Assembly (NCBI GenBank): GCA_003245715.1
Contig: QKCJ01000024.1
Span: 1-64,000, forward strand
Source of the DNA: a bacterium
GTDB taxonomy: Bacteria; Planctomycetota; SZUA-567
Direction: 5' to 3'
Length of the DNA stretch: 64,000 nucleotides
Part shown: positions 1,761 through 14,602 of the stretch, piece by piece
Layout: every line of letters begins with the position of its first letter
Numbering within the stretch: position 1 is the first letter of the stretch
The notes under the pieces: model-generated
Told to the model about the DNA's origin: nothing
Seen by the model: the letters and a program-made list of their open reading frames with translations, nothing else
Databases searched by the model: none
Translations under genes and position numbers: made by a program

Positions 1761-4049
1761 TTATTGTTTAATTCGATAATAAGTTTTCTTCTTGCCTTCT
1801 ACTATTACACTCTCAATTTGCTCACCTTCAATTAAAGCATAAATGATTTCGTCACGTACCCTTCCTGTCAAAAACTGAGTCTTACGTGTAAGTAGACTTT
1901 TATTTATTGGTTTCCTATGGTCACGAATGATCTGCAAGATCTTCTGGTGATTGCGTTCGACATCGTTCTCGGCAACATTATTTTTTACTTCTTCTATCAT
2001 GTACTCTGTAAGAAGCATAGATAATTCACACCCCCATTTAGCAGATTCAAGTGTGACCTTCGGGCAAAGATAGTTCTGGCAACATGCGTGAATCAAAGAA
2101 ATACGCTGTCCTTTTTCGATGGCACGTGTCCATAATGTTGCTAAAGGTTCACCTACCTTGCGCCCAAGTTGACGGGCGTGTTTGCGCATTGAACGGTAAT
2201 ACTCAGCGACACCTTCACCATATGGAACATTGATAAGCGTTGGATTAAGATCCTGCGCAATACCACCAAGTATTCCTTGACCTACATATTTATTCTGTAT
2301 TTCATTAAGAACTGACACAAGATTTTCAGGGATATAGTCACTATTACCATCTTGATCTTTAGGATTGCTACGCCCATTAATAATGAGAACACGAGCAAGA
2401 AAACCATTGGAAATATTTTCCTTCGGCATTTTATCATAAAGCGAATCAGCCACTGTGCAGCCATAAATTCCTAAACATGGCTGCACAATATCGTCTATGG
2501 AATAACCAGCTGCAGCTTGTGGAGTATAAACACTGTTTGAGCATGAATACATTTCCATCAAGTTCTTTACTATTTCTGCTAAATGTGGATTACTTTTGCC
2601 AGCCATATTAACGCCACGTAAATACAAACCAGCTTCATCAATAAGAGACAATATCCTTGGCCGTTCACTGAGAGTTTTAATCAATGCACTACCAGATCGA
2701 AAACCAGAAGGCCCTAAAATATTCTTCATTTCTGATATGGGTAATATTTTTTGAATAGCTTCAAGCGCCCTGTTTTTACCACCGCCACTAGGCGCAGTAC
2801 CAAAGATATACAAATTTGTTCGGCAACCCTGTTCATCTTTATAAAGCCGACCAAAGACAACACCAAAGAAAGCAAGTGCAGCCCCCAATGATAATTCTGG
2901 TTGCAAACACCATGCTCCTTGATCCATATAGTCACACATTTGACTGAGCAATCCACCCGCATTTAAGAATGGGCGCATTCTTTTTAAGAATTCTTTTTCA
3001 GAATAAATACCTGGTGTATGTACTGGTGCTTCCACTTCCTGAACTGTCACTGTCGGCAAGGGGATATCAATTTCCTCGACGATCTTGTTGCCGGAATCTT
3101 TCTTGTGATACTTTACGGCGTTGTTAATGATCTTCTGCAGTTCCGGGTATCCATACTTCGGGTCATTCTGTATCGGCGGGTTATTGCTCATTAGATCCCA
3201 GCCGGTCAGAATCGTCAGTGCCTGCTGGTTATCCAGCTGATAATCATTGACCAGGACCGCCGCCACCCGGAAGGCTGTATTGGTGCGGCCGCCTTCGTTG
3301 CTGCCCTCGATGCTGGCAACATACTTCTTTGCCCGGCTGATTGTATCATCATCCTGACTAATTGGTGCGACCGGAGCGCCCGGTGCGACCGGCGTTACTG
3401 TTGGCGATGGCTGAGTCTCCCACGGCTTGATATTTACTGCCGGTTGTACGACTGGAGTTGAAACTTCCGGCAAAAAAGAGAGAAGTTCATCCAGTGAGTA
3501 CGGGCTTTCATGGTCAGCGAAGATAATTCCTGACTCGGCAATTGGCGGTTTATGATTGGTGAAACCCGGAAGGCGCAGAATTCTTGCAGGGTCCTTGACT
3601 GATTTGTCACAATCAAAAGCCTGAATGATCCGGGTAACGCACTCGCAGATCCGTTCCTTTGTTTCCCATTTATCCAGCTTCCAGAATAAATGCGCACCAT
3701 GACCGGTGTTGACAGCCATTGACGGTGGCGGGAATTCCTGCCTGCCGGTTCGTTCAATCGCTTCTTCTGGTGTCATATGGTCAAAGTCTGCCCAGACAAC
3801 ACGACCGCCTTCGACGTCTTCTGCCCTGCCCCCTTCTTTAATTCTCGGCAGAACCCCAGCGTAGATATTGGCGACACGGTTCTCAGCAATCAGCCGTTGA
3901 ACCCGGTCGGGGTGCGTAATATCTTTGGCCAGAATCCATTCACGTTTACCCATGCCTGCCGGAAGTGGCCGGATCTCGATCAGATCATTCTCTGACCAGA
4001 CAACTTTGGCATAAGCTGCAAGCTCACTTGTTACTTCACCCCCGTTCAT
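1761..4049 (-). CDS. Phage primase-helicase: AEP-like primase + DUF3987 helicase
   Basis: A 762-aa replication protein. The N-terminal part has the three signatures of archaeo-eukaryotic-type primases of plasmids and phages: acidic pair ADFDH (D88, D90), NTGHGAH (about 114-120) and RILRLPG (about 156-162). A PriCT-like helical segment follows at about 235-315. Residues from about 350 resemble DUF3987 helicases, with Walker A GTAPSGGGK at about 417-425. The likely role is primer synthesis and unwinding at the element's origin. It starts 29 bp after the SF2 helicase gene. Base composition changes sharply inside the gene: lines coding for residues 215-290 reach 63-67% GC, while most of the DUF3987 part is about 37-47%. 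The step falls at the domain boundary near 3000, suggesting domain shuffling. Confidence 0.8.
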   Translation of the reverse strand: MNGGEVTSELAAYAKVVWSENDLIEIRPLPAGMGKREWILAKDITHPDRVQRLIAENRVANIYAGVLPRIKEGGRAEDVEGGRVVWADFDHMTPEEAIERTGRQEFPPPSMAVNTGHGAHLFWKLDKWETKERICECVTRIIQAFDCDKSVKDPARILRLPGFTNHKPPIAESGIIFADHESPYSLDELLSFLPEVSTPVVQPAVNIKPWETQPSPTVTPVAPGAPVAPISQDDDTISRAKKYVASIEGSNEGGRTNTAFRVAAVLVNDYQLDNQQALTILTGWDLMSNNPPIQNDPKYGYPELQKIINNAVKYHKKDSGNKIVEEIDIPLPTVTVQEVEAPVHTPGIYSEKEFLKRMRPFLNAGGLLSQMCDYMDQGAWCLQPELSLGAALAFFGVVFGRLYKDEQGCRTNLYIFGTAPSGGGKNRALEAIQKILPISEMKNILGPSGFRSGSALIKTLSERPRILSLIDEAGLYLRGVNMAGKSNPHLAEIVKNLMEMYSCSNSVYTPQAAAGYSIDDIVQPCLGIYGCTVADSLYDKMPKENISNGFLARVLIINGRSNPKDQDGNSDYIPENLVSVLNEIQNKYVGQGILGGIAQDLNPTLINVPYGEGVAEYYRSMRKHARQLGRKVGEPLATLWTRAIEKGQRISLIHACCQNYLCPKVTLESAKWGCELSMLLTEYMIEEVKNNVAENDVERNHQKILQIIRDHRKPINKSLLTRKTQFLTGRVRDEIIYALIEGEQIESVIVEGKKKTYYRIKQ

Positions 4050-4078
4050 ACATTCCCTTCAATTACGAATTGTTCAAT

Positions 4079-6280
4079 TTAAAATGGTATATCATCCTGG
4101 TTAAACCAGTCGATTAGATTGGTGCCTTCACCGATTCCCGCTTCTTCAGCCATGACCTGACGCTCGATATCAGCGGCGGCAAGTTTCTCGTCGATTTCTT
4201 CGTGGCTTAACATCGGACCGAATTCATAGCCAATGATCTCAGGGAAGTTCTTTCCCGCTTCTTCACGGACTGTGATCTTCTTGACCTGCCTGAATACCCC
4301 AGCGTCGGCAAGCTCAATCGCTTCCATTACAGTGGATGGGCATTCCAAAGGACACATTTCTACCCACCAGTTTTCTGCCTGCTGTCTGGCAAAGCCCTGA
4401 TGCTCGATGCACACCCACTTACGGTATACTTCCATGCTCATGCCGCCGGTTCTGAACTCCACGCGCAATGTCGGCGGTACTTCTGGATCATCTTCAAAGC
4501 CACGCTTGCGGTGCATGAAACATCTTGTTTCAGCGATAACGACGTCATAGGTGTTGATCTCCCCAGAGACGACGCCCTTATTTCCGGCGATATGATTATG
4601 CAGAATGGTATCAGCTGCAAACTCATGGTTGCATTCCGGGCAAAGCTTGTAACCGGCGAAGACAATTTCGTGACAGTTCGGGCATTCCTTGGTGGCTGCT
4701 TCTCCATCACCGTCAGACTGCTTACCCTTTGGCGGCCGGATCATATCAATCGGGCCATGCGTTGCTACGTTCTCACCATAGTCAAGGACCAGGCAATCCT
4801 TCTTACCCTCGCAGATCCGCAGGCCACGACCAACCATCTGATAATAAAGACCAGGCGAAAGGGTTGAGCGAAGCAAGGCCACACAGTCAACATTAGGCGC
4901 GTCAAAGCCGGTGGTCAGTACATTGACATTGGAGAGGTATTGCAACTTCCCTTCTTTAAATGCTAAAAGAATTTTCGCACGTTCATCTTTGGGTGTATCT
5001 CCGCAGACAAATCCGCAGGAATATCCGGCTTCAATGATTGCTTCCTGAATTTTTTTACCGTGATCCACGCTTGCACCAAAGATCAGGGTTGACTTTCTGC
5101 CTTGCGTTACAGTCATGCGCAGGATTTCGTCGATAGCCGCCAGCATGATCTCGTCAAACTTGGCTGCCATTTCACTGCTGACGTATTCCCCACCACGGAC
5201 TGAGACATTAGCCATGTCAGCGTGTTCACAACCACGTTTTGTTTTGAGTGGTGAAAGATACCCCTGCAGGATCAGCTGTTTGAGTGGAGCTTCATAAACT
5301 TTATCCGTGAAAATATCATCCTTGCCGCCGTAAATGATACCGGAATCCAGTCGGTAAGGCGTCGCAGTCAAGCCGATAACAACAGCATTAGGATTCGCAA
5401 TAAGAATATCCGTCAAAAACTTGCGGTACATGGTCGCGTCTTTGCTGGAAATTAAATGACATTCGTCTACGATAATAATATTGAACGGGTTTGGATTGCA
5501 GAGTTTGAACGCCTTCTTATAAACTGACTGAATACCGGCAACAACAACAGGGTTATCCGTATTACGACGATTCATTCCAGCAGAATACAGACCGACGGTA
5601 GGATTGTTAATCGGGCCTGCAGGCAGGAAGTGAGCCAGTTTGTCGGCAGCCTGCTCAAGAAGTTCCTTGACGTGAGCAAGCACACACACCCGGCCGCCCC
5701 ATTTGGTAACCACATCACTGCAGATCTGCGAGAGTAATGGTGTCTTACCGCTATTATGATGAACTAAAGACTGTTCATCAAGATAAAGATGGTCGCCGTC
5801 CAGAGTGAAGCCATAGAAATCACCAACCCCGACAGGCTTAATATCAAATATGTATTCATGTCGATATGTTTTACGTTCAAGAAATTTCTTTTGCATGAAA
5901 AATTTACAATTTAGTTTTTTCATTGCTTCATATACAAACTTAACGTCTAGATTCTTCATAGAGTAATTCAGGGTCACATGAAGAATATGATCTTGATTGA
6001 CAATAAAACTATGATCTTCGAGAAACACCTCATACATATGGTGACGTCCGCGGCAAAGCTGCAATACATTACGCGGGTTTCCGTCGGCTCCCATCAACAT
6101 ATCACCAACAACAATGTCTTCAACATTTTTAATGTTGCCATTGAACATCATTATGCCATACCCTTTAGCATGACAACCCGTTGGCAGAACCGCGCAGGGG
6201 TGGCCGCCTTTGGTCTTGCGCATATAAGCGTAGATCGCGTCCAGCGCTTCCTGTTGGTACCATCGCAATGAGAAAGCCAT
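4079..6280 (-). CDS. SF2 DEAD/DEAH helicase interrupted by a mini-intein in the P-loop
   Basis: A 733-aa precursor. Without the intein the protein is about 592 aa with superfamily 2 motifs: Walker A PTG/SGKT (split by the intein), DECH in IIIVDECHLIS, GLTATPYR, and motif VI QMVGRGLR. A C-terminal CPNC...CPEC zinc site follows. Such helicases sit in phage replication modules beside RusA and Sak4-like recombinases and probably unwind DNA during replication or recombination. The start codon follows GGGGGTAAT and directly abuts the stop of the 58-aa gene. The enzyme needs protein splicing to have a P-loop at all, so splicing is presumably active. Host exteins are GC-rich (one flanking line is 63% GC) while the intein is as low as 22%. 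Confidence 0.88.
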   Translation of the reverse strand: MAFSLRWYQQEALDAIYAYMRKTKGGHPCAVLPTGCHAKGYGIMMFNGNIKNVEDIVVGDMLMGADGNPRNVLQLCRGRHHMYEVFLEDHSFIVNQDHILHVTLNYSMKNLDVKFVYEAMKKLNCKFFMQKKFLERKTYRHEYIFDIKPVGVGDFYGFTLDGDHLYLDEQSLVHHNSGKTPLLSQICSDVVTKWGGRVCVLAHVKELLEQAADKLAHFLPAGPINNPTVGLYSAGMNRRNTDNPVVVAGIQSVYKKAFKLCNPNPFNIIIVDECHLISSKDATMYRKFLTDILIANPNAVVIGLTATPYRLDSGIIYGGKDDIFTDKVYEAPLKQLILQGYLSPLKTKRGCEHADMANVSVRGGEYVSSEMAAKFDEIMLAAIDEILRMTVTQGRKSTLIFGASVDHGKKIQEAIIEAGYSCGFVCGDTPKDERAKILLAFKEGKLQYLSNVNVLTTGFDAPNVDCVALLRSTLSPGLYYQMVGRGLRICEGKKDCLVLDYGENVATHGPIDMIRPPKGKQSDGDGEAATKECPNCHEIVFAGYKLCPECNHEFAADTILHNHIAGNKGVVSGEINTYDVVIAETRCFMHRKRGFEDDPEVPPTLRVEFRTGGMSMEVYRKWVCIEHQGFARQQAENWWVEMCPLECPSTVMEAIELADAGVFRQVKKITVREEAGKNFPEIIGYEFGPMLSHEEIDEKLAAADIERQVMAEEAGIGEGTNLIDWFNQDDIPF
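5753..6175 (-). other. Mini-intein coding segment (141 residues)
   Basis: In-frame insertion encoding residues 36-176 of the helicase precursor. It begins with Cys (block A, CHAKGYG), has the block B-like stretch NQDHILHV with a conserved His, an F-like block VGVGDFYGFTLDGDHLYL, and ends in VHHN, the usual penultimate His and terminal Asn. The next extein residue is Ser, in SGKT. Removing it restores a canonical PTGSGKT. At 141 residues there is no room for a homing endonuclease. In block B the usual Thr is replaced by Asn. The segment is strongly AT-rich compared with its flanks, consistent with separate ancestry. Confidence 0.92.
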
Positions 6281-13549: not shown

Positions 13550-14602
13550 CTATAACAAGTCGATATCTTTGTCTTTTTTGTCTTTAGGTATGAATCTAGC
13601 ATAATACCGCTTACAGACGTCAATTGAATGTCCGGCCCACATTGCGATTTTATCCAGTGAGACGCCGGACTGCACTAAAAGACTACAGAAGGTATGGCGA
13701 AATGGGTTCCAGCCAATGCAGTCAGGATCAATCTCTTTGCAATGAGTTCGCAGTGTCTTAACCAAAGCCCTCTGACTGCCCTTATACGAGCCTGAACTAA
13801 ACACAAGCCCCTTACCCCTTGGGATTGCCGCCAAACGCTCTAAGAGGGGCTTTGCAAGCGGAATTGTGCGTACGTTTCCCTTCTTGGACTGAGCAACAAC
13901 TGTCTCTGATTCAAAATTGATATCTTCCCAGCGTAAACCAAAGACTTCGCCACACCGCATTCCGGTATAAACAGCCACCCAGACAGCAAGGCCGTATTTG
14001 TATTTCCCAGCAACCTCAAGCACCTTCTCCCGTTCATCCCTGGTCAGGTAATGAATTTCTTTGTTCACTTTCACCGCACGAGTCTTTTTGATATCTTTGA
14101 ATGGGTTGTTAGGCCAGTAATGAGTTTGGCAGGCCCACTTGTAAAATTTCTTCAGGCACATGAGCTTTTTATTTCTGGTTTCTACTGACTGCTTTAAACC
14201 AATTTCAGAGATATATTTCTGGGCTGTGATATCGGAAACCTCGGAGAGATCACCAAATTGCTTTTCAAAACCCCGTAAATATGCTTCTGAAGTTTTCAGC
14301 CAGCCATGGGTAACATCACCGGCAATCACTTTTAAGTAAACATCAATAATGCTTTGCCCTGGCTTCAACGAAACTGATTTGGTTTTGATGTATCGCTGTA
14401 CTGCAGGTTTAGTCAACAACTCTGGCGGCCATGGCGCGGCTTCCACAAGAGCGAGCTTGACTTGAGCTGCGCATAATTGAGCTTCCGGGAGAGAATCACA
14501 GACAATGGCATACTGCACACGATCCTTACGCCAAACGACACGGCGCTTGGTGCCTTTGTGCGTCAGGATCTTAACTGATGAAGTTTTCGCTTTAGTTCTC
14601 AT
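13550..14602 (-). CDS. int: Tyrosine recombinase (integrase)
   Basis: A 350-aa phage-type integrase. Core-binding domain is at about 75-165 and the catalytic domain at about 185-340. Visible active-site residues: Arg216 in TGMRCGEV, Lys240 or 241, Arg302-His303 in FRHTF, His325 in AGHS, and the nucleophile Tyr in YYAR (333 or 334). The first His of the usual HxxR box is replaced by Asn299. It catalyses site-specific integration and excision. The start is 126 bp from the 3' end of a tRNA-Leu, the usual place for the attachment site. Confidence 0.93.
   Translation of the reverse strand: MRTKAKTSSVKILTHKGTKRRVVWRKDRVQYAIVCDSLPEAQLCAAQVKLALVEAAPWPPELLTKPAVQRYIKTKSVSLKPGQSIIDVYLKVIAGDVTHGWLKTSEAYLRGFEKQFGDLSEVSDITAQKYISEIGLKQSVETRNKKLMCLKKFYKWACQTHYWPNNPFKDIKKTRAVKVNKEIHYLTRDEREKVLEVAGKYKYGLAVWVAVYTGMRCGEVFGLRWEDINFESETVVAQSKKGNVRTIPLAKPLLERLAAIPRGKGLVFSSGSYKGSQRALVKTLRTHCKEIDPDCIGWNPFRHTFCSLLVQSGVSLDKIAMWAGHSIDVCKRYYARFIPKDKKDKDIDLL

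What the first reader, a model, noticed from the sequence alone, without database searches (positions are those of the whole stretch)
5753..6175. AT-rich mini-intein splitting the P-loop of a phage SF2 helicase
The helicase is unable to bind ATP unless the 141-residue insert is spliced out: PTG and SGKT are separated by it. The insert has Cys1, a block B His, VHHN and Ser +1, and is far more AT-rich than its flanks (22% versus 63% GC in counted lines). It lacks room for a homing nuclease. A spliced P-loop could act as a post-translational switch on element replication.
Basis: partly seen in the sequence, partly recalled or inferred. Interest (0 to 1): 0.75.

Follow-up and report, generated by a model that had tools for sequence, protein, structure and literature searches.

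The report
Mini-intein in a prophage helicase P-loop
A prophage DNA helicase gene carries a small self-splicing protein insert (an intein that has lost its homing nuclease) in the middle of its ATP-binding loop; it is a clear but ordinary new member of a large, known group of phage P-loop inteins.

Summary
Confirmed. Codons 36-176 of the helicase ORF 4079-6280(-), window 5753-6175, encode a 141-aa mini-intein: PTG|CHAK...VHHN|SGKT. It matches Pfam Hom_end_hint (9e-20), aligns with PI-SceI at both ends, and its AlphaFold model matches the Prp8 mini-intein (6mwy, TM 0.86) and many other inteins. Cys1, Asn60/His63 (block B), His140, Asn141 and Ser+1 are present; the first five are invariant in 20 related inteins. 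At least 35 homologous helicases, the closest (53%) in the same bacterial family, have an uninterrupted P-loop. Others, including two in genomes of the same phylum, have a full-length 345-350 aa intein with a LAGLIDADG-type endonuclease at exactly the same position. The window's copy is therefore an endonuclease-deleted allele of a widespread P-loop homing intein. That splicing is needed for ATP binding is a sound inference; the proposed regulatory switch has no specific support here. The AT-rich claim is real but overstated: 36% GC against 49-58% in the flanks; 22% is only the lowest 60-base stretch, in the old endonuclease linker. P-loop mini-inteins in helicases and phage ATPases are already known (DnaB, RadA, TerL). 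New member of a known kind; low-to-moderate interest.

The parts
4079..6280 (-). precursor gene: SF2 DNA helicase (PHROG_16; ResIII + Helicase_C) interrupted by the intein; 733 aa precursor, 592 aa after splicing
6176..6280 (-). N-extein, residues 1-35, ending ...AVLPTG
5753..6175 (-). mini-intein, 141 aa, Cys1 to Asn141
6173..6175 (-). Cys1 codon (TGT), N-terminal splice junction
   Evidence: invariant in 20 inteins
5987..5998 (-). block B N60-Q-D-H63 (N-x-x-H)
   Evidence: N60 and H63 invariant in 20 inteins
5858..5935 (-). linker (about residues 81-106; 22% GC at residues 81-100) where the LAGLIDADG endonuclease sits in full-length relatives; low model confidence at 88-102
5753..5821 (-). 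C-terminal splicing blocks: FYGFTLDGDHLYLDEQSLVHH140-N141, C-terminal splice junction
4079..5752 (-). C-extein, beginning with Ser+1 of SGKT (rest of the Walker A motif), then DECH motif II and Helicase_C

Best explanation
The insert is a class 1 mini-intein of the Hom_end_hint (VMA/Prp8-like) type. After translation it should splice itself out by the standard route: acyl shift at Cys1 helped by block B His63, transfer to Ser+1, Asn141 cyclisation helped by His140. This joins ...AVLPTG to SGKT..., restores the Walker A motif PTGSGKT, and makes the prophage's SF2 replication/recombination helicase able to bind ATP. It descends from full-length LAGLIDADG inteins that home into this P-loop codon in related phage helicases. 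It has lost the endonuclease, so it no longer spreads by its own nuclease and is inherited with the gene; any imprecise loss would destroy the P-loop. Shown by sequence: homology, predicted fold, catalytic residues, exact insertion, empty and full-length alleles. Inferred: that splicing occurs, that the precursor is inactive, and the direction of change (full-length to mini).
For: Pfam PF05203 9e-20; PI-SceI match at both termini; AlphaFold model pLDDT 82, pTM 0.75, best PDB matches Prp8 intein 6mwy (TM 0.86), PI-SceI domain I, gp41-1, Msm DnaB inteins; Cys1, N60, H63, H140, N141 invariant in 20 inteins. At least 35 homologues with continuous P-loops such as PTG(S/G/A)GKT, closest L035 (53%, same bacterial family). 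Same-codon full-length inteins (345-350 aa, LAGLIDADG-like motif) in helicases 42-48% identical: L059, L076, L078, L124, L128, and in two genomes of the same phylum, G351 and G364. A splicing-domain tree places the window among P-loop helicase inteins of the same register; highest identity is to L059, 54%.
Against: No expression or mass spectrometry evidence of splicing. Only one copy of this allele is known, so purifying selection could not be measured; a recently inactivated intein with intact motifs cannot be excluded. The tree has few columns and weak support at the window's own fork, so which full-length intein is its nearest parent is open.
Confidence: 0.95

Rival explanations
1. Conditional splicing: the intein has been kept because splicing is regulated (by redox state, DNA or another signal) and works as a post-translational switch on the helicase.
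For: Precedents exist: Msm DnaBi1, a P-loop mini-intein whose splicing is inhibited by H2O2 (PMC6195587), and P. horikoshii RadA, a P-loop mini-intein activated by ssDNA in which the loop that once held the endonuclease acts as a hinge (PMC5790916). This copy is a P-loop mini-intein with a retained linker and two extra cysteines, C41 and C90.
Against: Only one copy exists. The N-extein cysteine at -7 (PC-x-V-x-PTG) is also present in intein-free homologues, so it is not an intein-linked sensor; C41 recurs as 'LC' in several full-length inteins of the family. Nothing specific to regulation was found.
Confidence: 0.1
2. A decaying intein: splicing is lost, the precursor helicase is dead and the prophage is defective.
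For: No endonuclease; single copy; the prophage is cut by the contig end, so its completeness is unknown.
Against: All catalytic residues are intact, the frame is open and the profile score is high; the exteins are also intact, with DECH and Helicase_C.
Confidence: 0.04
3. An ordinary domain insertion or a Hint-like autoprocessing domain (bacterial intein-like or hedgehog type) rather than an intein.
For: Hint folds are shared by BIL and hedgehog domains, which also appear in the fold search.
Against: The insert breaks Walker A exactly, has Asn141 and a Ser+1 nucleophile, and is absent from at least 35 homologues; the best matches are true inteins.
Confidence: 0.01

Closest known systems
Full-length LAGLIDADG inteins in the P-loop of phage SF2 helicases (e.g. 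Listonella phage phiHSIC ORF42, Klebsiella phage YX3973, Escherichia phage PJ16; IMG/VR loci L059, L076)
   Same: same insertion codon, (A/P)TG|C...HHN|(S/C/T)GK(S/T), same splicing blocks, homologous exteins
   Different: they carry about 200 more residues with an endonuclease domain; the window's copy does not
Proteus phage vB_Pmi_BCPPmi_001 helicase mini-intein (annotated hypothetical protein)
   Same: 140-aa mini-intein at the same codon of a related helicase
   Different: 40% identical intein; Cys+1 in place of Ser+1; possibly a separate loss of the endonuclease
Mycobacterium smegmatis DnaBi1 (PMC6195587)
   Same: mini-intein in a helicase P-loop; the P-loop Ser doubles as splicing residue
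   Different: class 3 intein with a different catalytic route (6bs8 title), in a replicative DnaB; regulation shown experimentally
P. horikoshii / T. sibericus RadA mini-inteins (PMC5790916)
   Same: P-loop mini-inteins with a short loop where the endonuclease was
   Different: archaeal recombinase; control of splicing by ssDNA and temperature shown experimentally
Mycobacteriophage TerL P-loop inteins (PMC5050341)
   Same: phage ATPase P-loop inteins
   Different: terminase exteins; inserted between Lys and Thr, or one residue away
PI-SceI (VMA1 intein) and Prp8 inteins
   Same: sequence family (PF05203) and fold of the splicing domain
   Different: eukaryotic hosts, other insertion sites

Membership tests
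class 1 intein (Hint superfamily) | nucleophile Cys/Ser at position 1 | tested here: met
   Cys1, invariant in 20 relatives
class 1 intein (Hint superfamily) | block B histidine | tested here: met
   H63 invariant, with invariant N60 at H-3
class 1 intein (Hint superfamily) | C-terminal Asn (with penultimate His) and Cys/Ser/Thr at +1 | tested here: met
   H140-N141-Ser+1
class 1 intein (Hint superfamily) | Hint fold | tested here: met
   AlphaFold model; Foldseek 6mwy TM 0.86; linker 88-102 is low confidence
class 1 intein (Hint superfamily) | in-frame insertion absent from homologous host proteins | tested here: met
   at least 35 intein-free homologues
class 1 intein (Hint superfamily) | self-splicing with ligation of exteins | not testable with these tools
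   needs expression and mass spectrometry
mini-intein | no homing endonuclease domain | tested here: met
   141 aa; alignment lacks about 205 residues of the endonuclease domain; no LAGLIDADG_3 or HNH_3 match elsewhere in the assembly
phage SF2 DNA helicase (PHROG_16) | ResIII/DEAD + Helicase_C domains, phage neighbourhood | tested here: met
   PHROG_16 4e-95; primase-like, RusA, SSB, Sak4-like annealing protein, Mu Gam-like, anti-repressor and integrase neighbours
RadD (NCBIfam equivalog) | score over curated cut-off | tested here: not met
   271.7 bits against cut-off 720
conditionally splicing intein | splicing depends on a signal | not testable with these tools

The most novel reading that the evidence does not exclude
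The endonuclease-free intein has been co-opted: splicing of the P-loop is timed by a signal (for example ssDNA, or oxidation of C41/C90) so that the prophage helicase stays silent until induction. Several P-loop phage inteins of this family seem to have lost the endonuclease separately, which could reflect repeated co-option rather than decay.
Probability: 0.08. Interest if true: 0.55.

Novelty: new member of a known kind. Interest (0 to 1): 0.22.

Why it matters
It gives a clean series of empty, full-length and mini alleles at one P-loop insertion site in phage-type helicases of one bacterial phylum. That makes it a usable test case for how inteins lose their endonuclease and whether the remaining splicing domain is kept by chance or for regulation. 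By itself it changes no existing view.

Tried and rejected
Exact-pattern search of IMG/VR with the window intein alone found nothing; the profile search found 339 relatives. A search of the host assembly for further Hom_end_hint inteins, LAGLIDADG_3 and HNH_3 found only this intein, so an endonuclease acting in trans is not seen, although the assembly is only about 91% complete. The redox-sensor idea using the cysteine at -7 was dropped because intein-free homologues have it too. The tail-tape-measure mini-intein of Ruegeria phages (43% over its full length, the top-ranked hit in isolate phages) was considered as nearest relative, but on splicing-domain columns L059 (same helicase family, 54%) has the higher identity. 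A first profile script gave no scores for file-format reasons and was rerun. A literature search for phiHSIC with intein found no paper in the library.

Full report
Observation. ORF 4079-6280 on the minus strand encodes 733 residues. Residues 36-176 (window 5753-6175, 141 codons, no stop) lie between PTG and SGKT, so the Walker A motif PTGSGKT is continuous only without them. The insert has 36.4% GC against 49.0% and 58.1% in the two flanks of the same gene and 45.6% for the window; the 22% quoted is the lowest 60-base stretch, residues 81-100. Inteins in related phage contigs are also often somewhat poorer in GC than their flanks, so composition is supportive but not decisive.

What it is. 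Pfam identifies ResIII and Helicase_C in the exteins and Hom_end_hint (PF05203) in the insert, E=9e-20, above its curated cut-off. PI-SceI aligns with the first 53 residues and again with the last 34. A profile built from 19 related inteins, window excluded, scores the insert at 140 bits; the best shuffled copy scores 4.7. The AlphaFold model (20-row alignment, pLDDT 82.4, pTM 0.75) is confident for most of the Hint core and poor mainly at 88-102. Foldseek returns inteins as best matches: Prp8 intein 6mwy (E=1e-10, TM 0.86), PI-SceI domain I, gp41-1, DnaB inteins. Cys1, Asn60, His63, His140 and Asn141 are invariant in the 20 aligned inteins.

Empty sites. The closest helicases are intein-free. 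At least 35 distinct homologues with a continuous P-loop were read, from genomes of the same phylum and from phages; the closest, L035, is 53% identical and comes from the same bacterial family. This excludes the reading that the insert is a normal domain.

Full-length alleles. A profile search of viral contigs returned 339 places that encode relatives (80 kept). Nearly all sit in P-loops, in one of two registers: G|C...N|(S/T/C)GK, as in the window, or GK|C...N|(T/S). Most are 282-358 aa, nearly all with a LAGLIDADG-like motif; a minority are 146-160 aa. Five contigs (L059, L076, L078, L124, L128) have full-length inteins at the same codon of helicases 42-48% identical to the window's exteins, and two genomes of the same phylum (G351, G364) have them at the same codon of homologous helicases. 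In the alignment the window lacks about 205 residues that form the endonuclease, and the gap falls in its AT-rich linker.

History. A splicing-domain tree (109 columns, weak support) puts the window among helicase inteins of the same register; by identity L059 is nearest, 54%. Mini-inteins need several separate changes on that tree, so endonuclease loss has probably happened more than once, although starred branches do not force it. The best-supported account is a homing intein that invaded the P-loop codon, then lost its nuclease. The direction of that change is inferred.

How it works. By established class 1 chemistry (general knowledge), Cys1 and His63 start the N-S acyl shift, the chain is passed to Ser+1, and Asn141 with His140 releases the intein; the product has PTGSGKT. 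Nothing here shows that splicing takes place, but all residues needed are present. An unspliced precursor would lack a contiguous Walker A motif, so it should not bind ATP; this is an inference that agrees with the published finding that the P-loop intein of P. horikoshii RadA disrupts ATPase function (cited in PMC6195587).

Context. The gene lies in a replication module: primase-like protein, this helicase, RusA resolvase, SSB-like protein, Sak4-like annealing protein, Mu Gam-like protein, anti-repressor, S24-type repressor and integrase at 13550-14602. From about 14.9 kb on the genes are of host type. The contig starts at window base 1, so the rest of the prophage is missing. The host phylum is very probably Planctomycetota: a same-phylum genome (G163) holds a 57,109-base contig with the same helicase as a Phycisphaerae MAG record of the same length.

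Known or new. P-loop inteins in phage and bacterial ATPases are well described: TerL (PMC5050341), DnaB (PMC6195587), RadA (PMC5790916); phage helicase inteins are annotated in deposited genomes, for example St162 'putative intein-containing helicase'. This is a new member of that kind. The switch idea has precedent but no evidence in this case.

Noticed in passing
L017 (Vibrio phage 13VV501A), helicase ORF at 1881-4391: Apparently two mini-inteins in one SF2 helicase: one in the P-loop in the GK|C...N|T register (147 aa) and one in motif II, DE|CFPAGT...VVHN|CHH.
   Followed up: partly
L036 (G177:C16), ORF starting at 352: A homologue of the window's helicase from the same phylum with an intact P-loop but an intein-like insert of about 300 aa in motif II, VDE|CFPAGT...AHN|CHL. 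The window's helicase has the same DECH site empty.
   Followed up: partly
L055-L134: One intein family recurs in P-loops of many phage ATPases in two registers, G|C..N|xGK and GK|C..N|T; the two registers are largely separate on the splicing-domain tree, with mini forms scattered in both.
   Followed up: partly
L067, L074, L079, L087, L093, L095, L096, L114: A cluster of closely similar 149-aa mini-inteins at an SGHG|C...HN|TGKT P-loop in several contigs, on a long branch of their own.
   Followed up: no
L014 2001-2417 (Ruegeria phage vB_RpoS-V18): A 139-aa mini-intein of this family inside a tail tape measure protein, KG|C...HHN|T, not a P-loop ATPase.
   Followed up: no
L021 (MT835760.1, human fecal phage), 2480-2884 and ORF from 4193: Mini-intein in the P-loop of an apparent large terminase (GAGK|C...HN|S); the next ORF may carry another intein-like insert right after GTGK (ALTLDSKILTP...).
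   Followed up: no
L015 1448-2044 (Roseobacter phage CRP-902): A free-standing HNH endonuclease gene directly upstream of an intein-free copy of this helicase.
   Followed up: no
window 13550-14602: Integrase marking the inner edge of the prophage; the rest of the prophage is cut off by the contig start at base 1.
   Followed up: partly
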